The notes below the pieces were generated by a model. It was not told where the DNA came from. It did not search any database and saw only the letters and a list, made by a program, of their open reading frames with translations. The translations under genes and the position numbers were made by a program. A stretch of DNA of 64,000 bases from Oscillatoriaceae cyanobacterium Prado104. Its GTDB lineage: Bacteria > Cyanobacteriota > Cyanobacteriia > Cyanobacteriales > Microcoleaceae. The DNA is taken from assembly GCA_025454405.1 (NCBI GenBank), contig JALOON010000049.1:62001-126000 (forward strand). The letters run 5' to 3'. Positions 19,625 through 33,646 of the stretch are shown piece by piece (position 1 is the stretch's first letter; each line of letters starts with the position of its first letter).

Positions 19625-19797
19625 TACGATCGCGGATTTTGGCTCAACTCGATCGGGATTTTGAGCCAAATCTTCCCCTGACCGGGGAAGACTTGGCTCA
19701 AATCACCGCTCAACATCGGCACTGCCAGTACAAAACTCAACTAGCGGGGGTATCCCCCCAGTCTGTTCACATGACACAGGTGATTGACAGCTTGATA

Positions 19798-19813
19798 CCG
19801 TAATTGATTACGG
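19798..19813. promoter_or_regulatory. Operator-like palindrome before the RHH-like gene
   Basis: CCGTAAT (19798-19804), two bases, ATTACGG (19807-19813): a perfect 16-bp palindrome, with TTGACA-like sequence just upstream at about 19784-19789 that could serve as a -35 element. It lies 48 bp before the start of the small protein, so autoregulation is plausible. The remaining 19625-19861 gap has a hairpin ATCTTCCCC/GGGGAAGA (about 19668-19690) and repeated GGCTCAA words. Confidence 0.55.
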
Positions 19814-19861
19814 AAACAGACTGTGGTAGGTTGTTAGTGTAAATCACGCGACACAAGTGAA

Positions 19862-20146
19862 ATGAGTAAGAATGTCAATGATGCAAGCTTGGCAAACCTC
19901 AAGCACTTTGAGGGGAAGTGGCGGCACGGGCAAACTCGCACTATCAGAGTGCCGATCGCACTTGCCGATCGCATACTCGCTTATGCGCGCCGTCTGGATA
20001 GCGGTGAATCACTTGACACACTCGAATTACCTGACGCTGCTGACTTACTAAACCAGTTGAAAGCCAAGCGCAAGCGATCGAAAGCTGATTTAGCTGATGT
20101 AGAGGCGATTTTGGAGTTGCTAGCAGAGGTGAACGGCTCAAACTAA
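19862..20146 (+). CDS. Small ribbon-helix-helix-like protein
   Basis: 94 residues. The segment QTRTIRVPIALADRILAYAR (about residues 24-43) has the strand-helix pattern of a ribbon-helix-helix DNA-binding domain; the C-terminus KRSKADLADVEAILELLAE forms a short acidic helix. A related C-terminus survives in the scar left of the element (11560-11650). Placed at the right end between a palindrome and the attachment repeat, it may regulate excision or itself. The DNA-binding call is by pattern only. Confidence 0.65.
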   Translation: MSKNVNDASLANLKHFEGKWRHGQTRTIRVPIALADRILAYARRLDSGESLDTLELPDAADLLNQLKAKRKRSKADLADVEAILELLAEVNGSN

Positions 20147-20159
20147 CCGTGGGAAAGGA

Positions 20160-20210
20160 TTGTATCCAATTTGTATCCAAAACTCGCAAATCGGAGTCAA
20201 TTTGTATCCA
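20160..20210 (+). promoter_or_regulatory. Three TTGTATCCA sites at the right end
   Basis: Copies at 20160-20168, 20171-20179 and 20202-20210; the first two are 11 bp apart, the third about three helical turns further on and seven bases from the attachment repeat. Together with the left pair they look like integrase arm-binding sites. A weaker copy (TGTATCCAA, 11680-11688) marks the older scar left of the element. Confidence 0.6.
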
Positions 20211-20216
20211 ATTCCC

Positions 20217-20345
20217 AGTCAATCTACCAGCAGATCGCCCCTAACCCCGAACATCAAAAAGCCTCAAACCCTTGATTTCTGGTAGGTTTGAGGCTGAAAT
20301 TTCGGTAAGCGGGCAGCGGGAATCGAACCCGCATAATTAGCTTGG
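20217..20345 (-). repeat. Right attachment repeat with tRNA-Gly 3' half and terminator
   Basis: Copy of 11795-11923 with two mismatches. On the minus strand the tRNA part runs from TTCCAAGC (anticodon TCC readable here) to the acceptor end. The 5' half of the tRNA, expected to the right at 20346-20376, is not there: the following 105 bp to uvrC show only a small hairpin (TAGCAAGCTA). So the tRNA gene was not restored at this end. Confidence 0.88.
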
Positions 20346-20450
20346 AATGATACTGCAAAGTTCTAAAAATAGCAAGCTATTTGTAAAAAAAATTTGGGGA
20401 CTCGGCTTTTCCCCTTGGAACAAGGGGCTTCAGGAAGATAGAATTCGCCA

Positions 20451-22484
20451 TCACGGATGAAAATAATCGTAAATTTGCTGCGCCAGACGCGGGCCGATTC
20501 CAGGAACTTCTGCCAATTGCGCGGGAGTCGCCAAGCGGAGGTAGTCGATCGACCGGAAATGTGCTAGCAATTGTTTTTGTCGGTGGTGTCCCAATCCGGG
20601 AATTTCATCCAAGCGCGATCGCTTCATTCTTTCGCTTCTTTTATCCCGGTGGAAACCGATCGCAAATCTGTGCGCCTCATCCCGCACTCTACGCAATAAT
20701 TGTACTCCCGGCTGCTCTGAATTAGTTGGCAGCGGCAAAGATTCCCCCGGCAAAAATATCTCTTCTCGCTGCTTTGCCAAACTGACAACGCGCAACTCTT
20801 CTAACAAATTCATTTCCCGCAAAACTGCCACAACTGCTGACAGTTGACCTTTGCCACCATCTATCATAATTAAATCGGGTTTGTCGGCAATGCGATCGAC
20901 CGCTGCAAAACTGCTGATTGCTTCCTGTCCTCCTAAATCGCTAAATTCTTTTTCCTTACCCCTGACTTCTTCTTGTTCCTCAAAATCATTTAATTCACTT
21001 TCTTCCTCCTTCCTTCTTCCTTCTTCCTTCTTCCTTCTTCCTTCTTCCTTCTTATTTCGGAATCTGCGGCCGATAACTTCTGCTAAGCTAGCAAAATCGT
21101 CGGAATGACCCGACTTAATTTCAGGATTTTTAATTTTGTAGTGGCGGTAGTGCTGGTTGGCGGGCAAACCGTCAATAAATACAACGCGGGAAGCTACGGC
21201 GTCAGAACCTTGGATGTGAGAAATATCGTAACCTTCGATGCGGTGTGGCAATTCCGGCAAATCGAGGATTTCTGCTAAATCTTGCATTGCTTGAGAATTG
21301 CGATCGCTCAGTTTTTGCATCCTCGCTAATTCATACTCAGCGTTGCGTTCTACCATGTCGATCAGTTCTGCTTTAGTTTGCCGCAGCGGTGTCAAAATTG
21401 CAACTTTTCGACCCTTGCGATCGCTCAACCAATCTGCTAGTATTTCTGTTTCGGGCAACTCGTACTGTACCAAAATTTCGCTGGGAATTTCTACAGGTTC
21501 TACATTTTGATAGTGTTCCTCCAAAACTCGCTGCAAAATCGCTCCCATTTCTACTAATTCTTGCCCTCCGTTACTGGGGGAAGGTTGAGAGGGGATATCT
21601 GCCATAAATCCCAATCTTCCTACCAATTGACCCGCACGAATTTGGAACAATTGAATGCAAGCGTGTTGGGTATCTGCCGCCAGCGCGATCGCATCTCTGG
21701 AAACAGTATCGTCTGGCAAAGATACTTTTTGACCTGCACTCAAAGACTCCAAACCTTTAATTCGATCGCGAATGCGCGCCGCCGTTTCAAAGTTTAAATC
21801 TGCGGCTGCTTGTTCCATTTGCGGTTGCAGCAATTCAATTAATTCTTGAGTCCTTCCCTGGAAAATCATCGCTACTTTTTGGATCGTTTTCCGGTATTCT
21901 TCCGGCGAAATTAACCCCTGACAAACACCGACGCAACGACCGATGTCGTAGTTCAAGCAGGGGCGGTCTTTAAACAGCGGTTGGGGGCGCTGCCGCAGGG
22001 GGAAAATTCGCTTGATTAAATGCAGCGTGCTCCGCAGCGCCCCGGTATCGACGTAGGGGCCGTAATAGCGGTCTTTTGCATTACCTGCGCGGCGCTTGCG
22101 AGTGATGAAAATGCGGGGGTATTCTTCCGACCAGGTGATGCACAAATAGGGATATTTTTTATCATCCTTAAGGAGGACGTTAAAGTAGGGTTGGTGTTGT
22201 TTTACGAGGTTGGCTTCTAATGCTAAAGCTTCGGCTTCGGTGTCGGTAGCGATGAATTCGATTTCCCGCACTTGCTGTACCATCATGGCGATGCGGGGGC
22301 TGAGGTTTTGGCTGTCGCGGAAATAGGAACGGACGCGGTTTCTGAGTTTTTTTGATTTGCCGATGTAAAGGATGCGATCGCTCTCGTCTTTCATTAAATA
22401 TACACCGGGAACTGCCGGAATTTCTTTGAGAATGCCGGACAAGCGTTCTGTATCTTTAACTAGGGGTAGCGTTTTTTTAGTCAT
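20451..22484 (-). CDS. uvrC: Excinuclease ABC subunit C
   Basis: 677 residues, longer than the usual 600-630. Makes the two incisions beside DNA damage in nucleotide excision repair. Order: GIY-YIG nuclease (about 20-100, [20 protein letters not shown]), UVR domain that contacts UvrB (about 215-250), RNase H-like nuclease (ISHIQG, then [15 protein letters not shown]), and the two helix-hairpin-helix motifs at the end ([20 protein letters not shown]). Between IGRRF and PDLIMIDGG there is an extra stretch of about 50 residues starting [18 protein letters not shown], produced by an in-frame heptamer array. The domains on both sides are intact, so the enzyme should still work. Confidence 0.96.
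21001..21053. repeat. Heptamer array (TTCCTTC)n inside uvrC
   Basis: About seven copies of the 7-bp unit, read in frame by uvrC as a seven-residue period KKEEGRR (three units = 21 bp = 7 codons). Same unit as at 580-619 and 55696-55757, which are outside genes. Confidence 0.92.
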
Positions 22485-22547
22485 TAGTCATTAGTCATCA
22501 GTCAACAATCATCATAGCACATCCTGCTGCCTAGTTAACAGTCTATT

Positions 22548-25500
22548 TTACCTCATTCCAGTGCAGGTAAAAGCTGCCCAGTAAAAAGGGTGAGAGAAAG
22601 GTTGTGATTCTTGACAAATTTTATCTAAACTTTGGCGATATTGATGAATTTTGTTGCCAAGTTGAGCAGATTTTTTGTACTCTTCATCCCAGTGCCAATA
22701 AATAGGAGAATCTACCAATTCAGCATCTCGATTTGCCTTGGCTTTTTTGCGAAGTTCTTCAGTTTCTTTAAGTTGCTGTGTCAAAAATTGTGCGAGTTGG
22801 GGTTTGTAACTAGCATCAAAAGTATTGCCCGCAAGCGATCGCAATTTAAGTTGAGCTTGTCTAATAGCTTCGGGACGATTCTTTCTCTGCTGCCACTCTT
22901 GATAGTAAAATATCGAAAAAAGTGCTGTCGCTAGATCGTCAACAGCCCAAAGCGTACTAATAACACTTCTGGCTCCTGCCGACAAGAAAGCCGTTGAAAA
23001 TGTGAGGATATCGCCAGTAATTTCACTCAATCCCAATCCTGTTTCGCAGCAGGAAAGAAATACATCCGACAACTGAGGGAGACGCCATGCGGGAGTCATT
23101 AACTGACCTAAAGTAATGCAGCCATCTCCTAAAATTAAGGTCGATTCTAAGGGATTGTCAAGGCGCGACTGGGCGTGGTGGCTGGAGTGGAGAATTTGGA
23201 CGGTTTGCGCCAATTGTCGGTAGTTACTAACTGTAGCTTGACGGCGACCTTTTAAGCGTCGATCGTCCGAGATGTTATAAATAACTGCTAGTTGCTCTCC
23301 TTCAAAGCTGGCAAAAGGTAAGTCACCCGTCGCATCTTCAATTGTGCCGCAATTCAGATTGCTGCTGGAAGGGCGCTGCTGGCAAAATTCTAGGATTTGA
23401 CAACTGGGTGCGTAACGAATCAGAAACTTGTCTCCCAAATATCGGTTGTCTCCAATGGGCAGTGCAGCGAAGGGGATGTGATGCAGGGCATAATGAGGAA
23501 TTACAATCAGTTCGGAAATCCCTTCTAAATGCCACAAAATCAGGTCATTCAAATTTAACATTTTTGCGAGTTCAGCTAGCATACTAACTAACTCTTCTTC
23601 CCAATAATTATTATCGTCAACATATTGTCCCAACCAATTTTCGATAATCCATTCGTGCAAAGTATCTAATCCTAAATTAGCGCAACTTTGCAGGGTAATC
23701 TCATTTTGCCTCACCACGAAGATCGAGGTGTCGCTAGCAGTAGTGTAAAAGCTCAGAATGGCAGTATTTGGTTTGTCGATAAGTCGCTGGATGGATGAGA
23801 ATTTAAGAGGATTGACTCGAATTTGACCCGCAAGCACTGGATCTAGACGGCGGAGTTGTTCCCAAATTAGGAGCTTATTAGCTTCCAGAGAAGCTATTGT
23901 TTGATTGTAAGCTTCTACTGCTGCACGGCTGTTATCCAGCTTGGTGTTATCAAAGTCACTACTAGGTTTATTGCGCCCTCGTTCCTTGTCAATTTGTTGC
24001 TGCAACCGTTCAAAGTCCTGCAAATACTGTTGAATTTCAGCAGGAATTTCTGCACTTGAATAGAGGTCATTACTTGCCATCAAATCTACGAGGCGTTTGG
24101 AGCGCGATCGCTCTACATATTCAACAGCTTTATCTAACTGCTTGTTATTGATGCAAGCTTGCACGATGTTTGCGTAAATGTCGATCGCTTCTGACACAAT
24201 TTCTTGGCGGCGAGATTCAGAATTTGCCCAAGTACGGCTAATTTCAACGGCTTCAATTGCCATACTGTATCCCTCAATGGCTAATTGCCAATCTGCAACT
24301 ATAAATGCTATGTTTCCCAGCATTTTTCCAGAGTTGGCGCATTCAAATGGGAAAGCAGTTGGTGTGAAAATTTCCATTGCTTTTCGATAATACGCGATCG
24401 CCTCAAAGTTTCGATTAAGATTAAGGTAGGCATTACCCAAATTCATTTGAGTCATAGCCCACTCTCTAGGAAAATCATCGGGCTTAAAGACTTTTAAAGC
24501 AGATTGATGGGCGGCAATAGCCATTTCTAAATTCTCATTTCGATCGCCCTCAAGTCGAGCCCTATAAGCATTGCCCAGATTCGTTTGCACTCCTGCCCAA
24601 CCTGAAGGAAAAGCGTCTTGAGTGTAAACTTGCAATGCTTCTTTGTTAGCTGCGATCGCCCTTTCAATATTTTCTACCGGATCGCCGTGAAGTCGGTGGC
24701 GGTAAGCAGAAGCAAGATTCATTTGAGTTTGCGCCCAAAGTTCCGGGGATTCTTCGCGGGTGCGGAATAACAGAGCATTTTGATAGCAATCAATTGCTTG
24801 TTCCAAATTTTCCGCCTTGTCACCATAAATGCGATCGCGGTAAATAATACCTAAATTGTTTTGAAGTTGAGCCCATGCTACCGGATTTACTTCGCGGGTG
24901 TCAACTTCCATTGCTGCAAAACAAGCGGTTATTGCTAATTCTGCATTTTCTAATCGATCGCCGCGAATTCTGTTGCCCCAAGCAAGAGCCAAAGTATTTT
25001 GAATTGCAGCCCAGTTTTCTGGAAATGCTTCGCGGGTAAATACTTGTAGGGCATTTTGGCAGCAGGCGATCGATCGCTCTTGATTTTCGGCGAAATTGCC
25101 TTTAAAACGGTGATAATAAGCTCTGCCAAAAAACATCTGACAATGTGCCCACCCTTCTGGAAGAGATTCGCGGGTTAAGACAGTAGCAGCAATTTCATAA
25201 CCTGCGATCGCAATCTCTAAATTGTTAGCTTGATTTCCTTTTTTAAATTCATGGAGGCACAAACTTAAGCCTATAATGCCAGCAGCAATTTCTTTTTTCT
25301 CTTCTGGTGGCACTTCAGATAACGTAGCAGACGATTTATCTCGCAACACCTTAATAAAGTGTTCGTCAAGTAGATATTGGTTAGCTTCAAGCACGAGATT
25401 AACTTCTGGCAGTCCCGTGAAAAAATGCTTGTCGGATCTATCGGCATTGGTTTTCACCAATCTGTCAGCAGTGTCGAGTCTATTTGAGTTTGTTTCCACC

Positions 25501-27512
25501 AATCCATCTACAGTTTGGAAATTCCTTTCACTTTCATTAATGGCTTTGAATAATTGAAACAATAAACGATAGCGAATTTCCTCTTGGATGGAGTTCCATT
25601 GTTCGGGAAATTTTTCTTGGGTAAAAACAGTGGCAGCAATTTCGTAGCCTGCCTTAGCAATATTCCAGTTGTTTTCTTCATCGCCTTTATCAAAATGTTG
25701 AATCAGCTTGCTGAAACTGAGAATTGCCGCTGCTATATTGATTTCTTCGGCTGGGCCTAATTTAGATAAAAATAATTTTATCAGGTTTAATTTTTCTACT
25801 AAACTGTCGTTCAGTTGCTCTAAATTTCCTTCAAGAAGTTGGTAGAAAACTTGCGGGTTATTTTCGCTTTCGAGAGCTGTTTTCAAAGCTCGATCGAGAA
25901 ACTGCCCCAATGAAGTTACTTGCTGTAATTGAACATCTTGCAGCAGTTCTAAAATAAAAGGAGAGCCGGAACGTTCAGCATATTCTCTGGCTCGATCGCG
26001 CTCTCCACAGGCGAGGCAAAGCGTTACTATTTGCAGGTAAGCAGAAAATTTTTCAGGAATTTCTGACTCTAAAGATTCGGTCATTCCCCAGCGATCGAGC
26101 AACTCTACAGCTTCAATGACAATCGCAAAAGATGCAAAAGCTTCTATCTTTTTACCAGCAGCCAGTGCTAGCTTTCCCAACTCAAGTCCGGTTCCGATAC
26201 ACTCTCTAGGAAATGAACTGGGAGTAAAGACAGTTAATGCCGCTTCAAAACAGGTTAAAGCGTCAGCAATTTGTCCTATTTTGCGGTAAGCTTTGCCCAA
26301 ATCAGACTGGGTATTAGCCCATCTTTCTGGATAGATTTCGGGAGAATAAATTTGTAAGGCGGCTTGATAAGCCGCGATCGCCCGTTCCAGATTCTGTGTT
26401 TTGTCCCCTAAAACTCTTTCAGTATAAGCAGTGCCGAGGTGCCATTGACTGCTAGCCCAATCGGCATCAGTGCGAACTTTTAAGGCGACTTGATAACAGG
26501 CGATCGCTTGCTCTAAATTTTGCGATCGATCTCCTGTAACTCTCCGAGTGTAAGCAACTCCGAGATTATTTTGCAGCCTTCCCCAAAGTTCGGGATCTCG
26601 ATCGCGGCTAACAACTTGTAAGGCTGTTTCATAACAGGCGATCGCCTTTTCTAAATTCTCAGATTCATCTCCGACGATTCTGTCACTGTAAACAAGACCG
26701 AGATTATTTTGCACCATCGCCCACTCTTGGGGAGAAGTATCGCGAGTGGAAATTTGCAGAGCATTCGTACAAGCGGTGAGGGCTTTTTCAAGGTTGTCGG
26801 AGCGATCGCCCCTCCTCCGATGGCGGTATGCTGGGGCTAAATCGTTTTGGATTTTTACCCACATTTCGGGTAAAACATCACGAGTTAAAATCTTGGCAGA
26901 TCCTTCAAAACCTGCAATGGCAATTTCCAGGTTAATTGCTCTGTTGCCTAGTGGGAATAGCCAGAGAGATTCGCAGAAAGATATCAGAAAAAGTGCGATC
27001 GCTTTTTTCAGTTTTGGCTCGCTTTGCAGGAGCGTGTAATCTATCCAGAGACAAAATTGCTGCAAAAAATCTTTATTCAGTTTGTCGCAATTAGTGGCTA
27101 ATATCAAATTAACAGTTTTTGAATCACTTGGGTTGAGCGAAATTATCCGCAATACTTCCCACAAGAAAGCCGGAGCTTTAACAAAAGTACCTGTTAATGG
27201 CGAGCCATCAGCTCCTATGTAAGAATTATATAAAAAATCAGCCAAATCGATTAAAAATTCAGCTCCTAAGAGATCCCGCTGCGCTACAAAAATTGTAGCT
27301 ACCATTTCCATCATTTCCACCAAACCAACATCCACCAAGTCCGCGTGCTTCCTTAAAATCTTGATTTCCTTACCGCGCGGACATTTGAGGAGATCTTGAA
27401 TTAGTTTGGAATAAGCTTGTTGGCGTTTTGCCGCTTGGGGAGTGTTTTTCGGGCCGAATCCTTTAGCCATATTCTGTACGGGTTGCGAAGGGAGACTACA
27501 TATACACATCAC
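22548..27512 (-). CDS. Giant TPR-CHAT protease-like protein
   Basis: 1654 residues (1640 if it starts at the second Met, 27470, MAKGFGPKN, which may be the true start). Residues about 180-470 and 730-1120 carry many TPR units of the type ENLEKAIACYETALQ..W..VQNNLGLVY. A coiled-coil link follows (about 1180-1260), then a C-terminal CHAT domain (about 1390-1650). CHAT proteins are caspase/separase-like cysteine proteases; the catalytic pair is visible as H1445 (LHSSHHAQ) and C1489 (LSCCETG). The substrate is unknown. It lies 15 bp after a DUF1822 gene and a sigma-like gene, a set I have seen together in other cyanobacteria. TPRs probably sense a partner and release the protease. Confidence 0.9.
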   Translation of the reverse strand: MMCICSLPSQPVQNMAKGFGPKNTPQAAKRQQAYSKLIQDLLKCPRGKEIKILRKHADLVDVGLVEMMEMVATIFVAQRDLLGAEFLIDLADFLYNSYIGADGSPLTGTFVKAPAFLWEVLRIISLNPSDSKTVNLILATNCDKLNKDFLQQFCLWIDYTLLQSEPKLKKAIALFLISFCESLWLFPLGNRAINLEIAIAGFEGSAKILTRDVLPEMWVKIQNDLAPAYRHRRRGDRSDNLEKALTACTNALQISTRDTSPQEWAMVQNNLGLVYSDRIVGDESENLEKAIACYETALQVVSRDRDPELWGRLQNNLGVAYTRRVTGDRSQNLEQAIACYQVALKVRTDADWASSQWHLGTAYTERVLGDKTQNLERAIAAYQAALQIYSPEIYPERWANTQSDLGKAYRKIGQIADALTCFEAALTVFTPSSFPRECIGTGLELGKLALAAGKKIEAFASFAIVIEAVELLDRWGMTESLESEIPEKFSAYLQIVTLCLACGERDRAREYAERSGSPFILELLQDVQLQQVTSLGQFLDRALKTALESENNPQVFYQLLEGNLEQLNDSLVEKLNLIKLFLSKLGPAEEINIAAAILSFSKLIQHFDKGDEENNWNIAKAGYEIAATVFTQEKFPEQWNSIQEEIRYRLLFQLFKAINESERNFQTVDGLVETNSNRLDTADRLVKTNADRSDKHFFTGLPEVNLVLEANQYLLDEHFIKVLRDKSSATLSEVPPEEKKEIAAGIIGLSLCLHEFKKGNQANNLEIAIAGYEIAATVLTRESLPEGWAHCQMFFGRAYYHRFKGNFAENQERSIACCQNALQVFTREAFPENWAAIQNTLALAWGNRIRGDRLENAELAITACFAAMEVDTREVNPVAWAQLQNNLGIIYRDRIYGDKAENLEQAIDCYQNALLFRTREESPELWAQTQMNLASAYRHRLHGDPVENIERAIAANKEALQVYTQDAFPSGWAGVQTNLGNAYRARLEGDRNENLEMAIAAHQSALKVFKPDDFPREWAMTQMNLGNAYLNLNRNFEAIAYYRKAMEIFTPTAFPFECANSGKMLGNIAFIVADWQLAIEGYSMAIEAVEISRTWANSESRRQEIVSEAIDIYANIVQACINNKQLDKAVEYVERSRSKRLVDLMASNDLYSSAEIPAEIQQYLQDFERLQQQIDKERGRNKPSSDFDNTKLDNSRAAVEAYNQTIASLEANKLLIWEQLRRLDPVLAGQIRVNPLKFSSIQRLIDKPNTAILSFYTTASDTSIFVVRQNEITLQSCANLGLDTLHEWIIENWLGQYVDDNNYWEEELVSMLAELAKMLNLNDLILWHLEGISELIVIPHYALHHIPFAALPIGDNRYLGDKFLIRYAPSCQILEFCQQRPSSSNLNCGTIEDATGDLPFASFEGEQLAVIYNISDDRRLKGRRQATVSNYRQLAQTVQILHSSHHAQSRLDNPLESTLILGDGCITLGQLMTPAWRLPQLSDVFLSCCETGLGLSEITGDILTFSTAFLSAGARSVISTLWAVDDLATALFSIFYYQEWQQRKNRPEAIRQAQLKLRSLAGNTFDASYKPQLAQFLTQQLKETEELRKKAKANRDAELVDSPIYWHWDEEYKKSAQLGNKIHQYRQSLDKICQESQPFSHPFYWAAFTCTGMR

Positions 27513-27527
27513 CCATCCGCTTCAAAA

Positions 27528-28289
27528 TTACGCAACATCCCTCCAAATTCCTGCTAACTTCTCCAGCAGCGCTTCGGCTAAATCTTGTAAGTCAGTGTCG
27601 GTGCTATCGGCACTTTCACGAGTAAAATCTCCTCCTGCGGCACTCCCGGCCAATACTTCTCCCGCTGCGTACCGCCATTCGTACTCCTCGCAAGTTCGAT
27701 AAATCCGCTCCAATTGGGCAACAATATTGCTGGGCGATCGAGCTTCTATTTGAGAGCGCACTCGTACAGCCACCGGATCGTCTGTTTCTAAGAAAGATAT
27801 TGCTTCTTCTAAACGAGTAATTTGTTCGATTAAAAAGTCGATCGGCATCAATTCTGCTATCGCTAACTGTTGCGGTGGGTTCGAGCTATCTAAGGTTGGG
27901 GCAAATCCCAATAGTTGCACGGAATCCAGGCGATCGCTAAACTGTACCCCCACATATCCAATCCGATTTTCTATTACTTCTTCTGGTAAGAAGATAGTTG
28001 TTTCACCAGGTAAAACCGGGCGACATTCTAGGGAGCCAATGCCGGGAATTACCAAATCTGCGACATTAACTATCGCAACTTTTACAGGATTGAAACTATC
28101 AGATAGATTCAAATCTGTTTCAATTTGCAGCCATTTTAAATAGCTGCGAACTGCATAAACTGCTATCGCGTTTAAGTAAACTCGTTTTCCTTTTGGGACT
28201 GTACTTTGAACCGCAGCAAGTTGTCGCGCCCTTTCGTGCGCTTTTAACTCTAGCGGTACTGTTAATAGAGGTAGTTCTGCGGTGTTCAC
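27528..28289 (-). CDS. DUF1822 family protein
   Basis: 253 residues. Recognised as DUF1822 by the opening LLTVPLELKAHERARQLAAV, the segment RVYLNAIAVYAVRSYLKWLQ, and IENRIGYVGVQFSDRLDSVQ. The function of this cyanobacterial family is unknown. Start ATG overlaps the stop of the sigma-like gene (ATGA) and the stop is 15 bp from the TPR-CHAT gene, so all three are coupled. The tail after residue 200 is Gly/Ala/Ser-rich and looks flexible. By position it could be the protease substrate, or an anti-sigma factor, but that is inference. Confidence 0.8.
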   Translation of the reverse strand: MNTAELPLLTVPLELKAHERARQLAAVQSTVPKGKRVYLNAIAVYAVRSYLKWLQIETDLNLSDSFNPVKVAIVNVADLVIPGIGSLECRPVLPGETTIFLPEEVIENRIGYVGVQFSDRLDSVQLLGFAPTLDSSNPPQQLAIAELMPIDFLIEQITRLEEAISFLETDDPVAVRVRSQIEARSPSNIVAQLERIYRTCEEYEWRYAAGEVLAGSAAGGDFTRESADSTDTDLQDLAEALLEKLAGIWRDVA

Positions 28290-28981
28290 GATCCTGATTC
28301 CTGTTTATATCCTAGAGTACGGGCGATTTCTTGCAACGAGGGTTCGCATTTTCTCTTCCAATGAGAATTCAGAGTTGTGTATTTAACATTTAATTCTGTT
28401 GCTAAGTCTTGAAATTTGTCAGGAGGGTCTTTTAAAACTCTTCTCAGGCTGAGGAATTGGCAGTTACACTCAGGGTAAGAACGAGGGTAGCTATTTTTTA
28501 GCTTGCCTTCTGGATCTTGCTCTATGTAAATTTCTAGTTGCAGAGCTATTCGCTGAGTGGTTTCTTTCTGAGCGTTTTCAATGAGTCCATCCAAGCCGCT
28601 GAGTGTCAAGTCGGGTAACAGTTCGAGCCGAGTTGTTTCTCCAGAATCCAGCGCGATCGGAGCATCTAAATTAATTGGAGCATCTTTGTCAGGAGAATAC
28701 AAATCTTGAATTCGCCAACCCAGATAACCGTTAATCCAGTTAACCAAACTTGTTGAAATAGAAGGCGCTCTTGGCTCGAATTCATCAATATTTTCAAAGA
28801 ACCATTCTAAAGTACGGTTAAAGGCGTCGGGATAATTTGGATGAGTTGATTTTTTGAGTTTTGGTAGTTGCTGAATTTCCCGCAATAGCTGATTCATGGC
28901 CGTTCGCCATTTTATGCTTTGGGCTGGGTTTTGGCGCACTTCTGCGATTAAAGCGCTTAACCGTCGATCTAGGTCATCCAT
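28286..28981 (-). CDS. Sigma-70-like (ECF-type) transcription factor
   Basis: 231 residues. The middle part (FNRTLEWFFENIDEFEPRAP, NWINGYLGWRIQDLYS) fits a divergent sigma region 2, and the C-terminus (PDKFQDLATELNVKYTTLNS, then HWKRKCEPSLQEIARTLG) a region-4 helix-turn-helix. Length and order fit the ECF-like factors placed upstream of DUF1822 and CHAT genes in cyanobacteria. It overlaps the DUF1822 gene by four bases and begins 33 bp after the HNH gene. Sequence support is moderate; a plain HTH regulator is the alternative. Confidence 0.65.
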   Translation of the reverse strand: MDDLDRRLSALIAEVRQNPAQSIKWRTAMNQLLREIQQLPKLKKSTHPNYPDAFNRTLEWFFENIDEFEPRAPSISTSLVNWINGYLGWRIQDLYSPDKDAPINLDAPIALDSGETTRLELLPDLTLSGLDGLIENAQKETTQRIALQLEIYIEQDPEGKLKNSYPRSYPECNCQFLSLRRVLKDPPDKFQDLATELNVKYTTLNSHWKRKCEPSLQEIARTLGYKQESGS

Positions 28982-29014
28982 GCGACTTTTTTGAGGAGCA
29001 AGTTAGTTTGTTGA

Positions 29015-29311
29015 TTAGCTTTGAAAATTCGCGATCGTGCGAAAATCCTCAGCTATTTTCTCATTTAATTGAGTTCTAGGTGTGCGTAAATTCTTGCCAG
29101 GGGGAGGAAATAGGCTGTTGCCACGCGAATTATTGCAACTGAAGCAAGCTAAACGCAGGTTTGAGAGTGCGTTAGACCCGCCTCGGCTTTTCGGGAGTAA
29201 GTGTTCGATGGTTCTTTCTGATTTCTGCATCGGTTTGTTGCACCAGTGGCAGCAGTTTCCGTACATTTGCAGGAGTTGGCGGGTTTTACGGCGTTTTGCA
29301 GCAGGGTACAT
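29015..29311 (-). CDS. Small HNH endonuclease
   Basis: 98 residues, a minimal HNH nuclease: C-x2-C zinc ligands in CCHWCNKP, the catalytic TIEHLLPKSRGG, the N of ALSNLRLAC, and a second Cys pair ACFSCN. Such small proteins are common in cyanobacteria and their targets are mostly unknown. It is first in line before the sigma/DUF1822/TPR-CHAT genes, only 33 bp upstream on the same strand, so it may be co-transcribed with them; whether it belongs functionally is unclear. Confidence 0.88.
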   Translation of the reverse strand: MYPAAKRRKTRQLLQMYGNCCHWCNKPMQKSERTIEHLLPKSRGGSNALSNLRLACFSCNNSRGNSLFPPPGKNLRTPRTQLNEKIAEDFRTIANFQS

Positions 29312-29403
29312 AAAGCTTTGGGAGCCTCACGGCGATTAGGTGTTCGTTTACCTATCAGCCCCTTGCTAAAAATTTACGCAGCCATAATTTACAGGATGGT
29401 TAA

Positions 29404-29546
29404 TACCAATTTTTTATGAGGCTGCATAGAATCCGATCCCCCCTACCCCCCCTTAATAAGGGGGGAACAAGATTCTTCTCAAAGTCCCCCTTCTTAAGGG
29501 GGATTTAGGGGGATCGAGATATGTGCAACTTCATATTAAATTGGTA
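29404..29546. repeat. MITE-like element with TACCAAT ends
   Basis: 143 bp with imperfect terminal inverted repeats (TACCAATTTTTTATGAGGCT versus TACCAATTTAATATGAAGTT) around an inner palindrome built from GATCCCCCCTACCCCCCC and CCCCCTTAAG units. The inner unit recurs at 33340-33380, 33550-33622 and 57000-57116. No coding capacity. It takes up most of the 29312-29639 gap; the rest is heptamer-like TCAGTCA words. Confidence 0.75.
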
Positions 29547-29639
29547 TAAGAGTTCTCAAATGCTGGGATGGAAAGATGCAAAATCCTAGTTTGGTATCAG
29601 TCATCAGTCATTATCGATGACCGATTACCGATTACCCAT

Positions 29640-30392
29640 TTACAAAATCTGAGACAAAAACTTGCGCGTGCGCTCTTCTTTCGGGTTTTGAAAAAACTGT
29701 TCCGGCCCGGCTTCTTCAACTAAAACACCGCCGTCCATCAGTACAATTCGATCGGCCACTTCGCGAGCAAATCCAACTTCGTGAGTCACCACTACCATTG
29801 TAATTCCTGTTTGAGCTAAATTCCGCATGACATCTAAAACTTCCCGCACCATCTCCGGATCTAATGCTGATGTCGGTTCGTCAAACAGCATGATTTTCGG
29901 CTGCATTGCTAAAGAACGTGCAATTGCTACCCGCTGTTGCTGTCCGCCAGATAGCTGTCCGGGATATTTTTTTGCTTGTTCTAGAATTCCGACTCTTTCT
30001 AACCATTGCATCGCTATTTCTTCGGCTTTTTTCTTCGACTTTCGGAGCACCCACACTGGGGCTAACATGACGTTTTGCAGTACGGAGAGGTGGGGAAACA
30101 GGTTGAATTGTTGAAATACCATGCCTACTTCCCGGCGAATTGCTTCGATGTTGCGCAAGTCGTGGGAAAGTTCGATGCCGTCGATCGTAATTTTACCTTG
30201 TTGGTATTCTTCTAGTGCGTTAAATGTGCGAATAAATGTGGATTTTCCCGAACCGGAGGGGCCCATGACGACAACTACTTCGCCTCGGTTTACGTTCATG
30301 CTGACGCCGCGCAGTACGTGAAATTGTCCGTACCATTTGTGGACGTTTTCTGCGATGATTACTTGTTCTGGGGCTGTTTGTTGAGTTTGCAT
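29640..30392 (-). CDS. aapP: Polar amino-acid ABC transporter, ATP-binding protein
   Basis: 250 residues from the ATG at 30390-30392; a longer frame to 30476 would read through a GCTGATGAAC repeat and is rejected. Walker [10 protein letters not shown], signature LSGGQQQR, Walker [13 protein letters not shown] and the switch H in VVVTHEVG are all intact. [13 protein letters not shown] and [10 protein letters not shown] are typical of the GlnQ/AapP branch. It powers the two permeases encoded upstream. In Anabaena the matching N-II system (NatFGH-BgtA) takes up acidic and neutral polar amino acids. Confidence 0.93.
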
Positions 30393-30404
30393 ATGTTTTC
30401 TTTT

Positions 30405-30447
30405 TAACCGCTGATGAAGGCTGATGAACGCTGATGAACGCTGATGG
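30405..30447. repeat. AACCGC(TGATGAACGC)n repeat
   Basis: Three to four copies of a 10-bp unit GCTGATGAAC led by TTTTTAACC, directly before the aapP start. The same repeat precedes cysQ (51802-51840), and a degenerate one covers the PfkB start (about 54620-54670). Confidence 0.8.
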
Positions 30448-30607
30448 ATGTTTGTATTGCTGAAATCTTGCACCAATATAATCGGGGACTTTTTCGTGGG
30501 GTGGGCGGGTTTATTTAAGCTGTTTGCAAGCTTTAATGTTGTTGGCGAACCCGCCCCTACAGGTTATTGAGAATGTTGCAACTTGTCTGAGGGCTTAGGA
30601 TTAAGCG

Positions 30608-30658
30608 AAACTGTCAACTGTCAACTATCAACTGTCAACTGTCAACTGTCAACTATCT
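30608..30658. repeat. Heptamer array (CAACTGT)n at the aapM stop
   Basis: Seven CAACTGT/CAACTAT units. The aapM stop codon (30653-30655) is inside the array. Confidence 0.88.
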
Positions 30659-31837
30659 ATGTCCTACTCCTAAGTTTCGCTCGATTTTGCGGCTGGCTTG
30701 GGATATTGAATAGCAGAATATCCAGTAGATGATGCCAACGAATATGTAAACTTCGGCGTATCTGCCGATGTAGGATGGATTTGCTAAAATTGCGCGGGAT
30801 ATTCCGATTAATTCTAGCATTCCGAATAGGGAAAGCAGGGAAGTGTCCATGAACAATCCGATGAATTGACCTCCGATCGCGGGTATGACTGTTCGCAGTG
30901 CTTGAGGCAGTACAATTAATATTGTCAGTAGGGGTGTATTGAGTCCGAGGGCTCTTGCTGCTTCGATTTGTCCTCTCGGTATGGCTTGCAATCCGCCGCG
31001 CACGTTTTCTGCTAAGTATGCTGCACTAAATAATGTTAGTCCGGCGATCGCTCTGACTACTCTATCTAATTTAGGATATTCAGGAGGCAAGAACAGTTGC
31101 AGCATTACTTGACCTAAAAATAAAATGCCGATTAAGGGCAAGCCGCGAATAATTTCAATGTACAATGTTGACAGCAGTTTGACGACTGGCAACGTACTTT
31201 GTCTGCCGAGGGCTAGCAATACTCCTAAAGGAAAAGAAAGCACAATACTAATAATTGCTAAAAATAATGTCAGCACTAAGCCGCCCCAATCGTTTGTGTC
31301 TACTTCTCTCAAACCCAAGCCACCCTTAATCAACCACAAGATGACTGGAAATGAAAGCGCCCAGAATCCGGGCATCCAACTCATAATTTTGGGGTTGATT
31401 TGTCTTCCGGCTAGATAGCTGGCTGCGATCGCGACGATAATTCCTAAAATGTAAAAGCGAGATGTCAGGTCGATCGGGGAAATTAGCGCGATCGCCACCG
31501 CACCGCCGAGTATAATTAATAATCTTTCTTGCCGCTGAATGTTTCCCCAAGTTAAGCCGCCCAATACAGCAATTATCGCTGCTATTACCCACAGCCGCCA
31601 ATAAGATTCGCTGGGAAATCTGCCTGCAAAAAATAGTGGCAAGTTGGCTTCTAAGACTCGCCATTGAGCTTTGGTTGTTGCCCAAACGATGATTCCTTTG
31701 ATGATTTGGAAACTGACAATCAGGCAAACAACTGTCAGAATGCTGTTGTACCAGGTACTGAATAAGTTTTTGCGCGCCCAATTCCCAGGGGTTGGCGATT
31801 CGGTGGCTGGTGGCGGCAGTACGGGGATGGTTTCCAT
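30653..31837 (-). CDS. aapM: Polar amino-acid ABC transporter permease (second)
   Basis: 394 residues, like AapM/BztC-type permeases with an N-terminal extension. N-terminal hydrophobic helices (about 30-165) precede the conserved permease core (about 185-385) with LVLTLFLAIISIVLSFPLGV and the cytoplasmic EAA loop AARALGLNTPLLTILIVLPQ that contacts the ATPase. The protein is in the inner membrane. Its last codons are encoded by the heptamer array. It is third in the order binding protein, permease, permease, ATPase, with the usual aapJQMP arrangement. Confidence 0.92.
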   Translation of the reverse strand: METIPVLPPPATESPTPGNWARKNLFSTWYNSILTVVCLIVSFQIIKGIIVWATTKAQWRVLEANLPLFFAGRFPSESYWRLWVIAAIIAVLGGLTWGNIQRQERLLIILGGAVAIALISPIDLTSRFYILGIIVAIAASYLAGRQINPKIMSWMPGFWALSFPVILWLIKGGLGLREVDTNDWGGLVLTLFLAIISIVLSFPLGVLLALGRQSTLPVVKLLSTLYIEIIRGLPLIGILFLGQVMLQLFLPPEYPKLDRVVRAIAGLTLFSAAYLAENVRGGLQAIPRGQIEAARALGLNTPLLTILIVLPQALRTVIPAIGGQFIGLFMDTSLLSLFGMLELIGISRAILANPSYIGRYAEVYIFVGIIYWIFCYSISQASRKIERNLGVGHR

Positions 31838-31889
31838 ATTGTAGATTTTTGATTGGCTATTTGAGATAGGGGAATTGAAGATTTTTGAT

Positions 31890-32015
31890 AGTCAACTATC
31901 GGGATTTTTGAGTTGTGAGTTTTGAGATTTGAATTAAGATATGAGTTTTGAGTTGTGAGTTGTGAATTAAGAAATGTCTTTAACTCAAAACTCAAAATTT
32001 AAAACTCAAAACTTT
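31890..32015. repeat. Heptamer arrays (CAAAACT / AGTTTTG)
   Basis: Two opposed blocks: TTTTGAGTTGTGAG on the plus strand (about 31905-31965), then AACTCAAAACTCAAAA (about 31980-32012). They fill the whole gap between the two permease genes, and the first could pair with the second. Confidence 0.85.
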
Positions 32016-32018
32016 TCT

Positions 32019-33233
32019 TTATCTCTCTTTGAGTTGTACGGTTTGATTGTACCAATTCATGAACAGAGAAATCGTCAAACTAATAGTTAGGTATGTTACC
32101 ATAATAATCAGCATGGCTTCGATCGCCCGTCCGGTTTGATTCAATGTCGGCGAAGCAACCACGAAGTAAATGTCGGGATAAGCAATCGCCACCGCCAAAC
32201 TCGAATTCTTAGCTAAATTTAAATACTGGCTGGTTAAAGGCGGAATAATTACTCGCAAAGCTTGGGGCAAAATTACCAGCCGCATTGCAAGTCCCGATTT
32301 CAATCCTAAAGATTTGGCTGCTTCTAACTGTCCTTTCGGAACTGATTGAATGCCGGCGCGGACAATTTCGGCAATGTAGCTGCCAGTATACAAGCTCAAT
32401 CCTGTTACTAACGCCGCAAATTCTGGAGTTAATTTTAATCCTCCTTGTAGTTGCAATTCTGGTGTCAAAATGGGAAAATCTAGCCTAAATGGCAGATTTT
32501 TGGCAATAATTAAAGCTAAAATTGCACTCAGGACGATCGCGCCTCCTGCCCATAACAACTGCCTTCCCTGTTGCCCTTGTTCCAGCATCACGCGAGTCCG
32601 CCACTGCCACAACCCGACGGCTGCTAAAAGTCCGATCGCTAGCAAAATCAACCAAATTTCCCAACCGGGTAAAACAGCAGGCCAAGGTACGGCAATTCCG
32701 CGATTTGTCAAGTAAATCGGACCTCTTAGCTGTTGGTTGTCTTCGATTTTTGGCAGGGAAATAAACACTGCAAAATACCAAAAAAATAATTGCAGCAACA
32801 ACGGCGTATTTCGCAGAATTTCCACGTACAACCCTGCCAAATTTCGCAGCAGCCAGTTATCGGAAAGGCGAGAAATTCCTACAGTCAAACCCGCAATTGT
32901 TGCTAAAAAAATGCCGATCGCCATCACCCGCAGGGAGTTGATTAAACCTACAAGATAAGCTTGCCCGTAACTGTTTTCAGGACTGTAGGCAATAGCGGTT
33001 TCGCCGATGTCGAAGGATGCTTGAGAGTTGAGAAAGTCAAAGCCAAATTCGATTCCCAGTTGCGCGTAATTGGCAATGAGATTGTCTGCAAGAATGGCAG
33101 CAACAGCGATAACTGAAATTAGCGCGATTGCCTGTCCGGCAATTTTCCAAAAGCGATCGTCTCGCAGCAGTTTTGAGATATCTTTAAACTTCGATGATTT
33201 CTGAGTTTTGGCGTCTTGAGGTTTTGCATTCAT
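32019..33233 (-). CDS. aapQ: Polar amino-acid ABC transporter permease (first)
   Basis: 404 residues. A long N-terminal segment with a membrane helix (about 31-52) and an extra periplasmic loop, then the permease core in two halves (about 95-160 and 265-395) separated by an insert with two further helices, as in AapQ/BztB. EAA loop: LEAAKSLGLKSGLAMRLVIL. RNTPLLLQLFFWYF and the TGSYIAEIVRAGIQSVPKGQ block are diagnostic of polar amino-acid permeases. It pairs with aapM in the membrane. Confidence 0.93.
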   Translation of the reverse strand: MNAKPQDAKTQKSSKFKDISKLLRDDRFWKIAGQAIALISVIAVAAILADNLIANYAQLGIEFGFDFLNSQASFDIGETAIAYSPENSYGQAYLVGLINSLRVMAIGIFLATIAGLTVGISRLSDNWLLRNLAGLYVEILRNTPLLLQLFFWYFAVFISLPKIEDNQQLRGPIYLTNRGIAVPWPAVLPGWEIWLILLAIGLLAAVGLWQWRTRVMLEQGQQGRQLLWAGGAIVLSAILALIIAKNLPFRLDFPILTPELQLQGGLKLTPEFAALVTGLSLYTGSYIAEIVRAGIQSVPKGQLEAAKSLGLKSGLAMRLVILPQALRVIIPPLTSQYLNLAKNSSLAVAIAYPDIYFVVASPTLNQTGRAIEAMLIIMVTYLTISLTISLFMNWYNQTVQLKER

Positions 33234-33339
33234 AAGTTTTCAACTAGCAGGAAAAATATGCTTAAGAGAAAGCCTCGCACTGCATACTATTGGTGGAAAC
33301 TTAAAACTATACTACTTGAAAAATCTCGCTTTTAGCTGA

Positions 33340-33622
33340 GTCTAGATCCCCCTAAATACCCCTTAAAAAGGGGGACTTTGAGACTTTGAACTGGTTCCCA
33401 GGCTCTGCCTGGGAACCCATGTCCCGAGGCTCTGCCTCGCCTGCTCCCGCGAAAGGGATACTAGAGGCAGAGCCTCTAGATCTGCATTACCAGGCAGAGC
33501 CTGGTAACGAGTAAAAAACGAGTAAAACGAGTAAGCCTGGTAACGAGTAATTTCCTCCCCCTTTTTAAAGGGGGAGAAAATCTTGCTCCCCCCTTTTTAA
33601 GGGTGGCTGGGGGGGATCGAGT
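33340..33622. repeat. Cluster of GGCTCTGCC palindromes flanked by GATCCCCC repeats
   Basis: Four palindromes share the core GGCTCTGCC/GGCAGAGCC: 33393-33417, 33425-33439, 33461-33479 and 33487-33507, each with different flanks. GAGTAAAACGAGTAA direct repeats follow. On both sides lie pieces of the CCCCCTTAAAAAGGGGG family. This fills the gap between aapQ and aapJ, where mRNA hairpins could set different amounts of binding protein and permease. Confidence 0.85.
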
Positions 33623-33646
33623 TTAATGACTAATGACTAATAGAAA

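What the first reader, a model, noticed from the sequence alone, without database searches (positions are those of the whole stretch)
22548..29311. Compact HNH / sigma-like / DUF1822 / TPR-CHAT operon resembling a CRISPR-free protease signalling system
Seen: three tightly coupled genes (4-base overlap, then 15 bp) plus an HNH nuclease gene 33 bp upstream on the same strand. The CHAT domain retains its His/Cys pair (H1445, C1489) at the end of a 1654-residue TPR protein. Known: in type III-E CRISPR loci a TPR-CHAT protease (Csx29) cleaves Csx30, which frees a sigma factor (CASP-sigma). Inference: here the DUF1822 protein could be the substrate or anti-sigma factor, with its flexible Gly/Ala/Ser-rich tail as a cleavage region, so protease activation would switch on a sigma regulon. 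The trigger would be sensed by the TPR array instead of a CRISPR RNA.
Basis: partly seen in the sequence, partly recalled or inferred. Interest (0 to 1): 0.75.

Follow-up and report, generated by a model that had tools for sequence, protein, structure and literature searches.

The report
Mobile protease–sigma–nuclease cassette in cyanobacteria
Some filamentous cyanobacteria and their plasmids carry a compact, mobile set of four genes (a small DNA-cutting enzyme, a gene-switching sigma factor, a likely sigma-holding protein and a large caspase-like protease) behind one shared promoter; it resembles, without any CRISPR, the protease alarm of type III-E CRISPR systems.

Summary
Four genes and a promoter block form one discrete unit. 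Compared with close relatives, similarity starts at the promoter and stops just after the protease gene. In 16 of 16 same-genus genomes with both flanks on one contig the flanks lie 75-960 bp apart; here 7.1 kb. The sigma-like protein has a predicted sigma fold. The CHAT domain's nearest solved relatives are Csx29. DUF1822 comes in two forms that follow the protease partner: with an Ig-like C-terminal domain beside EACC2-type CHAT proteins (47 ORFs), without it beside TPR-CHAT (30; one frameshifted exception, 15 with neither). This suggests contact between DUF1822 and protease. The short form has a linker with a conserved Arg before a C-terminal helix, a possible cleavage site. An ECF-like block precedes HNH in 26 of 27 main-clade loci and occurs exactly once in this genome; a minority of sister sigma loci have a similar element. 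The wider family (EACC2-caspase, ECF sigma, DUF1822) is in print; my searches found no report of the TPR-CHAT/HNH cassette. That TPR-CHAT cleaves DUF1822 and frees sigma is inferred, not shown. A new variant of a known kind.

The parts
22535..29403 (-). Whole cassette (promoter, HNH, sigma, DUF1822, TPR-CHAT), approximate borders by similarity; the insertion relative to relatives spans about 22477-29637
   Evidence: blastn of window 18548-33420 against 20 loci: with the 6 Microcoleaceae loci similarity runs from window 29403-29380 to 22568-22535, none in the flanks held; empty site in relatives
29353..29380 (-). Conserved ECF-like promoter block TGCGTAAATTTTT-N9-CTGATA, ending 41 nt before the HNH start codon
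   Evidence: exact in 26 of 27 main-clade loci, from which the pattern was drawn; only exact match in the 8.5-Mb genome
29015..29311 (-). Small stand-alone HNH nuclease (98 aa), first gene after the promoter block
   Evidence: Pfam HNH_5 4e-13, HNH 3.6e-11; found in 26 of 27 main-clade loci (window; 21 by phmmer; L027, L069, L070, L071 by tblastn); dN/dS 0.09-0.26 in 4 of 5 comparisons, one saturated
28286..28981 (-). ECF-like sigma factor (231 aa; region 2 and region 4 folds, predicted)
   Evidence: AlphaFold2 model, mean pLDDT 82, pTM 0.41; fold matches
27528..28289 (-). Short-form DUF1822 protein (253 aa): N domain, helical middle, linker, C-terminal helix; lacks the Ig-like C-terminal domain
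   Evidence: domain layout from the model of homologue L089
27594..27668 (-). Flexible Gly/Ala/Ser-rich linker of DUF1822 (about residues 208-232), candidate cleavage region
   Evidence: alignment; corresponding region of L089 has pLDDT under 50 at residues 220-227
27618..27620 (-). Codon of Arg224 (TRE motif), candidate cleavage point
   Evidence: Arg followed by Glu or Asp in the linker of 34 of 36 short-form proteins; the other two have Arg-Asn
22548..27512 (-). TPR-CHAT protease (1654 aa from GTG; likely start ATG near 27470)
22557..23528 (-). CHAT domain (residues 1329-1652)
   Evidence: Pfam CHAT 3.4e-40; all 7 PDB sequences matched by this region are CHAT/TPR-CHAT/Csx29 chains
23175..23177 (-). 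Catalytic His1446 codon
   Evidence: aligned to Csx29; kept in 32 of 32 aligned proteins
23046..23048 (-). Catalytic Cys1489 codon

Best explanation
A mobile, self-regulated protease-sigma switch. At rest the short DUF1822 protein holds the ECF-like sigma factor (inferred from translational coupling and near-constant pairing). When the TPR region of the TPR-CHAT protease meets its unknown trigger, CHAT (His1446/Cys1489) cuts DUF1822 in its flexible linker, perhaps near Arg224, separating the C-terminal helix and freeing sigma (inferred). Sigma then transcribes from the operon's own TGCGTnAwTTTTT-N9-CTGwTA block, whose first product is the HNH nuclease, followed by more sigma, DUF1822 and protease: a positive feedback loop with a DNA-cutting payload, plausibly a defence or cell-suicide response. 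Shown by sequence: gene order, domain content, intact dyad, cassette borders and insertion, conserved promoter block, partner-dependent DUF1822 architecture. Predicted: sigma fold, disordered linker. Inferred: anti-sigma action, cleavage, cut site, autoregulation by this sigma, HNH as payload, defence role.
For: Pairing: of the 54 loci fetched by DUF1822 similarity (L065-L118), 53 have the sigma gene directly upstream. Sigma fold: the 50 VIA rows are sigma factors or RNA-polymerase/transcription-complex entries (where the title does not name the chain I take it to be sigma), led by sigmaE with anti-sigma RseA (1or7_B, Z 9.1, 152 aligned, rmsd 19.4); region 2 alone aligns at rmsd 2.5-2.8 over 84-87 residues (5wuq_B, 2o7g_A, 4lup_A). 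Nearest solved relatives of the CHAT region are Csx29/TPR-CHAT chains. Partition: of 93 DUF1822 ORFs, 47 with the C-terminal domain have an EACC2-type CHAT gene downstream, 30 without it have TPR-CHAT, 1 without it has EACC2 (its C-terminal domain follows in the next ORF), 15 have neither. Bridging proteins L089 and L043 have N domain, middle and C-terminal domain beside EACC2. Promoter: exact block once in this genome. With the class II pattern, not fitted to class I, 4 of 54 class I sigma upstreams (2 of the 54 too short to test; L022 and L047 are near relatives) have a site within 3 mismatches in 400 bp, where about 0.08 would be expected from the genome-wide rate (my arithmetic). L078, the one main-clade locus without HNH, also lacks the block. 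Mobile unit; conjugative plasmids.
Against: No binding or cleavage evidence. The DUF1822 profile gave only two weak PDB sequence hits, neither an anti-sigma factor nor Csx30, and its N domain was not searched by fold on its own. No Foldseek match of the sigma model reaches E 0.001, and unrelated helical chains share the list; middling Z is common for helical models (note). An Arg also lies in the corresponding stretch of bridging proteins paired with EACC2, so it may not mark a TPR-CHAT site; Csx30 cut sites are not conserved among Craspases (PMC11106740, passages). The partition counts related loci: the N-domain tree needs 5 label changes at best and well-supported branches force only 1; 15 of 93 ORFs have neither partner by my rule, and in L088 TPR-CHAT lies upstream, not downstream. 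The promoter pattern was drawn from the main-clade loci, so 26 of 27 is descriptive; at 3 mismatches the genome gives 68 hits against 42 for the reversed control. The refined class I pattern (7 of 49 sigma upstreams against 10 of 789 other ORFs, p 2e-5) was drawn up after seeing those upstreams, so its p is too good; 42 of 49 have no such site. The block is absent within 400 bp of sigma in the deeper class II loci tested (L040, L088, L090, L099, L101, L107, L110, L115), and HNH was not found in the 9 loci outside the main clade that I searched. No defence data; the window flanks are housekeeping genes.
Confidence: 0.45

Rival explanations
1. DUF1822 is an adaptor, not an anti-sigma factor. It bridges sigma to the protease so that CHAT cuts sigma itself, or a third protein, and the protease ends rather than starts the transcriptional response.
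For: Close sigma-DUF1822 pairing and partner-dependent DUF1822 architecture fit an adaptor equally well. The C-terminal domain of class I DUF1822 has an Ig-like, interaction-type fold. No similarity to solved anti-sigma factors was found.
Against: The short form keeps a linker with a conserved Arg before a conserved helix, modelled as disordered in a homologue, which looks more like a substrate than a plain adaptor.
Confidence: 0.25
2. A stress or development regulator rather than a defence switch: the cassette is a horizontally spread variant of a family that controls surface and matrix genes, and HNH is incidental.
For: Some class I loci carry the promoter element upstream of neighbouring genes that look secreted or SdrD-like by eye, and a class I plasmid locus sits beside S-layer family and ShlB-type secretion genes. 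HNH is not found in class II loci outside the main clade.
Against: The class II block occurs exactly once in this genome, in front of HNH, and HNH is kept under purifying selection in the main clade.
Confidence: 0.18
3. The promoter block is a housekeeping promoter or another regulator's site; sigma acts elsewhere, and the protease has unrelated targets.
For: No promoter measurement was possible; only a minority of class I sigma genes have a similar site.
Against: The same -35/-10 layout and spacing recur at some paralogous sigma loci, including a 2-mismatch site about 110 bp upstream of another sigma paralogue in a genome scan (L179).
Confidence: 0.12

Closest known systems
EACC2-caspase / ECF sigma / DUF1822 neighbourhoods (eLife 2021, PMC8195603, authors recalled as Kaur, Iyer, Burroughs, Aravind; section 9 read in full, other passages)
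   Same: ECF sigma and DUF1822 genes next to a caspase-fold peptidase; the paper already proposes autopeptidase activation with an ultimate step through the coupled sigma factor.
   Different: There the peptidase is EACC2 plus caspase domain with variable C-termini. Here it is a C-terminal CHAT on a long TPR protein without the EACC2-type region, DUF1822 lacks its Ig-like C-terminal domain, an HNH gene is linked, and the unit is a discrete inserted cassette with its own promoter block. The sigma-DUF1822 passage of section 9 mentions none of these; figures and supplements were not seen.
Type III-E CRISPR CASP/Craspase: Csx29, Csx30, CASP-sigma (Science 2022, PMC10028731; passages read; first author recalled as Strecker)
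   Same: TPR-CHAT protease whose CHAT domain is the nearest solved relative, an ECF-like sigma, and a third protein with a flexible region; CASP-sigma motifs in its own locus point to positive autoregulation in that paper.
   Different: No Cas7-11 among the cassette genes, no CRISPR-like array seen in window 10000-45000, NCBIfam Csx29 score 75.5 bits against a cut-off of 300, no Csx30 among the PDB hits of the DUF1822 profile.
Protease-cut anti-sigma factors RseA and RsiW (as described in PMC10028731 passages)
   Same: Logic: a protease releases an ECF sigma factor; sigmaE-RseA is the top fold match of the sigma model.
   Different: In that description DegS cuts a transmembrane segment of RseA; DUF1822 showed no homology to solved anti-sigma factors.

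Membership tests
Type III-E CASP (Craspase) | TPR-CHAT protease that passes the Csx29 family cut-off | tested here: not met
   75.5 bits, cut-off 300, match limited to residues 1253-1526
Type III-E CASP (Craspase) | Cas7-11 gene and CRISPR array in the locus | tested here: not met
   No CRISPR-like array among the repeats of window 10000-45000; the cassette holds only the four genes described and is inserted between an ABC-transporter ATPase gene and uvrC, named by eye. Cas7-11 was not sought elsewhere in the genome.
Type III-E CASP (Craspase) | Csx30 homologue as substrate | tested here: inconclusive
   No NCBIfam hit for the window DUF1822; no Csx30 among PDB sequence hits of the DUF1822 profile; the fold rows were filled by the C-terminal domain, which the window protein lacks
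EACC2-caspase/sigma/DUF1822 systems | Homologous sigma and DUF1822 pair | tested here: met
   DUF1822 2.7e-40
EACC2-caspase/sigma/DUF1822 systems | EACC2 N-terminal domain on the peptidase | tested here: not met
   phmmer with the first 320 residues of four class I CHAT proteins of this genome (taken as EACC2-type from the paper's description; no EACC2 model was available) marks none of the TPR-CHAT proteins downstream of short DUF1822
ECF sigma factor | Regions 2 and 4 folds | tested here: met
   (predicted model, pTM 0.41, the two domains being loosely placed)
ECF sigma factor | Binds core RNA polymerase and starts transcription | not testable with these tools
   needs an experiment
CHAT peptidase | His/Cys dyad | tested here: met
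   H1446 and C1489, kept in 32 of 32 aligned proteins (four duplicate loci and proteins with a CHAT match above E 1e-30 were left out)
CHAT peptidase | Proteolytic activity | not testable with these tools
   needs an experiment
Anti-sigma factor | Binds and inhibits the cognate sigma | not testable with these tools
   Only linkage and translational coupling were seen

The most novel reading that the evidence does not exclude
A mobile, CRISPR-free suicide or defence module in which a TPR-sensing caspase-like protease cuts a DUF1822 anti-sigma factor at a flexible linker, and the freed sigma drives mainly its own operon, firing a self-amplifying burst of an HNH nuclease. Exchange between its EACC2 and TPR-CHAT forms would show how protease-sigma alarms are rewired to new sensors.
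Probability: 0.27. Interest if true: 0.86.

Novelty: new variant of a known kind. Interest (0 to 1): 0.62.

Why it matters
If right, the protease-to-sigma signalling known from type III-E CRISPR would be one case of a broader bacterial alarm logic that works without guide RNA and with exchangeable sensors. The cassette is small and self-contained, offers a candidate cut site, catalytic residues, promoter and payload, and can be rebuilt in E. coli or a laboratory Nostoc, so a largely uncharacterised cyanobacterial family (DUF1822: 2 papers in the library searched) becomes directly testable.

Tried and rejected
Viral carriage: a scan of IMG/VR with the short-form DUF1822 profile gave 23 pattern matches, none encoding a relative. 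A large regulon of the class II sigma: not supported; in this genome the pattern has one exact site and the next best have 2 mismatches. A looser pattern gave 10 sites in four genomes, 4 of them the cassettes; the other six lie inside or at the edge of a called ORF. Sequence search for the sigma in Pfam, NCBIfam and PDB was weak (4 of 21 members hit sigma70-ECF), so fold was used. DUF1822 profile against PDB found nothing convincing. Fold search of the DUF1822 model was dominated by its Ig-like C-terminal domain; the N domain remains unassigned. No Rfam family in 18000-34000. PADLOC hits are HNH (mostly PtuB) and TPR models and a weak BovA match in CHAT. The Fisher p of the partition (9e-21) overstates independence; see the tree.

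Rows dropped before counts: loci L025, L026, L030, L121 as duplicates of L065, L119, L115, L085; L034, L035, L037 left out of the tree as divergent; L043 left out of the 36 short forms; the 93 ORFs do not include the window itself. The stretches fetched (L025-L064) were chosen by sigma hits, so sigma-DUF1822 pairing in them is partly by selection. Of the 15 ORFs with neither partner: L038, L066, L072 end their contigs; L095 has a TPR-CHAT fragment just over my E-value limit; L088 has TPR-CHAT upstream; L046, L113, L118 have an EACC2-type gene elsewhere in the locus; L034, L035, L037 are divergent; L028, L036, L062, L110 remain unexplained.
Full report
What is there. On the minus strand of window 22548-29311 lie four genes in one direction: HNH nuclease, sigma-like protein, DUF1822 protein, TPR-CHAT protein, with a 33-bp gap, a 4-bp overlap and a 15-bp gap. 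Many orthologues start the TPR-CHAT protein at MAKGFG or equivalent, so the GTG at 27512 is probably not the true start. The host genome has 8.5 Mb, 43 CHAT matches, 6 DUF1822 matches and 5 matches to the sigma gene, the window's own included. CHAT alone is ordinary here; the linked set is not.

The sigma protein. Sequence libraries barely recognise it: for the window protein no Pfam or NCBIfam hit passes a cut-off, and 4 of 21 family members match the sigma70-ECF model. The AlphaFold2 model from 32 sequences has mean pLDDT 82 and pTM 0.41. Foldseek's best match is E. coli sigmaE with RseA (E 0.04, probability 0.98), none reaches E 0.001, and unrelated helical chains are in the list. In the second look the 50 rows shown are sigma factors or RNA-polymerase/transcription-complex entries, led by 1or7_B at Z 9.1 (152 aligned, rmsd 19.4, the two domains sitting differently); region 2 aligns to SigW, SigC and sigmaE at rmsd 2.5-2.8 over 84-87 residues. 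Helical folds can give middling Z by chance, but the uniformity of the list makes a sigma fold the sound reading.

The DUF1822 protein. I sorted the DUF1822 genes of the fetched loci by what lies downstream. Class I: sigma, DUF1822 with a C-terminal domain, then a CHAT protein whose N-terminal region I call EACC2-type after the paper's description (no EACC2 model was available to test the name). Class II: sigma, short DUF1822, then TPR-CHAT. Of 93 ORFs, 47 had the C-terminal domain and an EACC2-type gene, 30 lacked it and had TPR-CHAT, 1 lacked it and had EACC2 (L043, where the domain sits in the next ORF after a frameshift), 7 had the domain and 8 lacked it without either partner by my rule (the 15 are listed under Tried and rejected). 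Among the 54 loci fetched by DUF1822 similarity, 53 have sigma directly upstream. L089 carries N domain, the class II middle region and the C-terminal domain together, beside an EACC2-type gene. So the C-terminal domain travels with EACC2, while the middle region can occur with either. The L089 model (mean pLDDT 81) shows an alpha/beta N domain, helical middle, a low-confidence linker (residues 220-227 under pLDDT 50), a long helix, another disordered stretch and a beta sandwich resembling Ig-like domains (best Z 8.2 over 81 residues, rmsd 2.4). The window protein ends after the long helix. In its linker an Arg followed by Glu or Asp is present in 34 of 36 short-form proteins, and Arg-Asn in the other two. 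The N-domain tree (91 rows) puts 27 class II rows, the window among them, in one well-supported clade (the main clade); the class II label needs 5 changes on the best tree but strong branches force only 1. The partition is striking but rests on few independent events.

The protease. The CHAT region matches Csx29/TPR-CHAT chains among solved structures (7 sequences, best 6e-7) and the NCBIfam Csx29 model at 4.1e-21, far below its cut-off. Aligned to Csx29 the dyad is H1446 and C1489, both kept in 32 of 32 aligned proteins. Against Nostoc orthologues the least conserved parts are around residues 101-200 and 501-700; in the two deeper homologues profiled (L107, L115) much of 401-800 is missing. 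Eight of eight EACC2-type proteins looked at keep their own His and Cys motifs.

The promoter and HNH. Upstream of HNH a block TGCGTnAwTTTTT-N9-CTGwTA is exact in 26 of the 27 main-clade loci. The pattern came from these loci, so that count is descriptive. In this genome it has one exact match, the next best having 2 mismatches; at 3 mismatches there are 68 hits against 42 for the reversed control. Evidence not fitted to class I: with the same pattern 4 of 54 class I sigma upstreams (two of the 54 too short to test) have a site within 3 mismatches in 400 bp (L022, L047, L092, L122), against about 0.08 expected from the genome-wide rate (my arithmetic). A pattern refined after seeing these gives 7 of 49 sigma genes against 10 of 789 other ORFs (p 2e-5, optimistic). 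A further class I pattern was run over seven genomes that carry class I loci: hits with at most one mismatch number 2, 3, 1 and 2 in G292-G295, 4 in this genome (three before a vWA-like gene, one the cassette) and none in G011 and G193; 6 of the 8 in G292-G295 lie on the contig of the sigma locus, but three of those six had been used to draw the pattern. Some stand before neighbouring genes that look secreted. A 2-mismatch site lies about 110 bp upstream of another sigma paralogue (L179). HNH is found in 26 of 27 main-clade loci (L069 and L071 matched over 70 residues only); the exception, L078, lacks the exact block as well. HNH was not found in 9 class II loci outside the clade. The four genes evolve under purifying selection (dN/dS 0.09-0.34 in 19 of 20 comparisons, one saturated).

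A mobile cassette. Window DNA compared with six Microcoleaceae loci is similar only from about 29403-29380 to about 22568-22535 and unrelated in the flanks held (for L070 only 200 bp of upstream DNA is held); with fourteen further loci the similarity also stays inside the operon. Of 20 same-genus genomes searched with each flank, this one included, 16 others have both flanks on one contig, and there the matches lie 75-960 bp apart against 7,109 bp here; one more has them on two contigs and two lack a strong match. Six loci from five of these genomes were aligned directly: similarity ends at window 22476 on one side and resumes at 29637-29640 on the other. Relatives at 62-65% DUF1822 identity sit on plasmids typed as conjugative in Nostoc sp. 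UHCC 0926, Aulosira laxa NIES-50 and Nostoc carneum NIES-2107. A scan of viral contigs found none.

How it probably works. Gene order, translational coupling, sigma fold, intact protease, partner-dependent DUF1822 and the conserved block in front of HNH fit a protease-released sigma factor that fires its own operon, with HNH as payload. The step from linkage to cleavage is inference. The adaptor reading of DUF1822 is the strongest rival.

What is known. PMC8195603 (section 9 read) reports ECF sigma and DUF1822 genes beside EACC2-caspase proteins and proposes peptidase activation with a transcriptional output. PMC10028731 (passages) shows Csx30 binding and inhibiting CASP-sigma, Csx29 cleaving Csx30, and CASP-sigma motifs in the CASP locus itself. 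PMC7159879 and PMC11119718 (searched for terms, passages seen) hold no mention of CHAT; PMC9679502 (one passage) only names DUF1822 genes. Searches for DUF1822 (2 papers), EACC2/EACC1, CHAT with sigma factors or cyanobacteria and Csx30/CASP-sigma showed no description of this TPR-CHAT/HNH cassette; only open-licence papers are held, and for most hits I saw only the listing and the start of the abstract. The cassette is best filed as a new variant of the sigma-DUF1822-caspase family that may work like CASP but is not a member of it.

Noticed in passing
L096 4376, L100 3407, L103 6456, L163, L165, L168: A TTGCATAAwTTTT-N10-CTGAkA element with a similar tail (AAyATATAGAGG in several) stands before genes that look secreted or SdrD-like by eye, next to class I sigma-DUF1822-EACC2 loci or (L163) on another contig: a possible surface-gene regulon.
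   Followed up: partly
G000:C131:15280-15473 (L128, L176): Three near-identical tandem copies of the class I promoter element, 83 bp apart, upstream of a gene that looks like a vWA-domain protein by eye.
   Followed up: no
L089 5696-7060; L043 5889-7206: Bridging DUF1822 architectures (N domain, class II middle, C-terminal domain) next to EACC2-type CHAT; L043 is split by a frameshift.
   Followed up: yes
L085/L121 8741-15504; L077 8810-15496: TPR-CHAT genes in two pieces in Nostoc carneum (annotated transposase between them) and Nostoc sp. XA010 (cause not examined).
   Followed up: no
L028 8636-9910; L040 8036-9196; L101 7093-7998: Sigma proteins with N-terminal extensions of about 60-190 residues of unknown kind.
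   Followed up: no
window 29403-29560: Imperfect inverted repeat with G and C runs just outside the cassette's promoter end, possibly a small mobile repeat (seen in the sequence).
   Followed up: no
phylum survey, family f31 genomes: Single weak DUF1822 matches (best E-values about 1e-4 to 1e-16) in about 100 small genomes of one family; not checked whether they are true relatives.
   Followed up: no
window 29015-29311: In NCBIfam the HNH protein scores best against the IscB and Cas9d models (2.4e-10, 1.8e-7), well below their cut-offs.
   Followed up: no
L122 (Nostoc sp. UHCC 0302 plasmid): Class I sigma, DUF1822 and CHASE2 genes followed by DUF928, S-layer family and ShlB-type secretion genes.
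   Followed up: no
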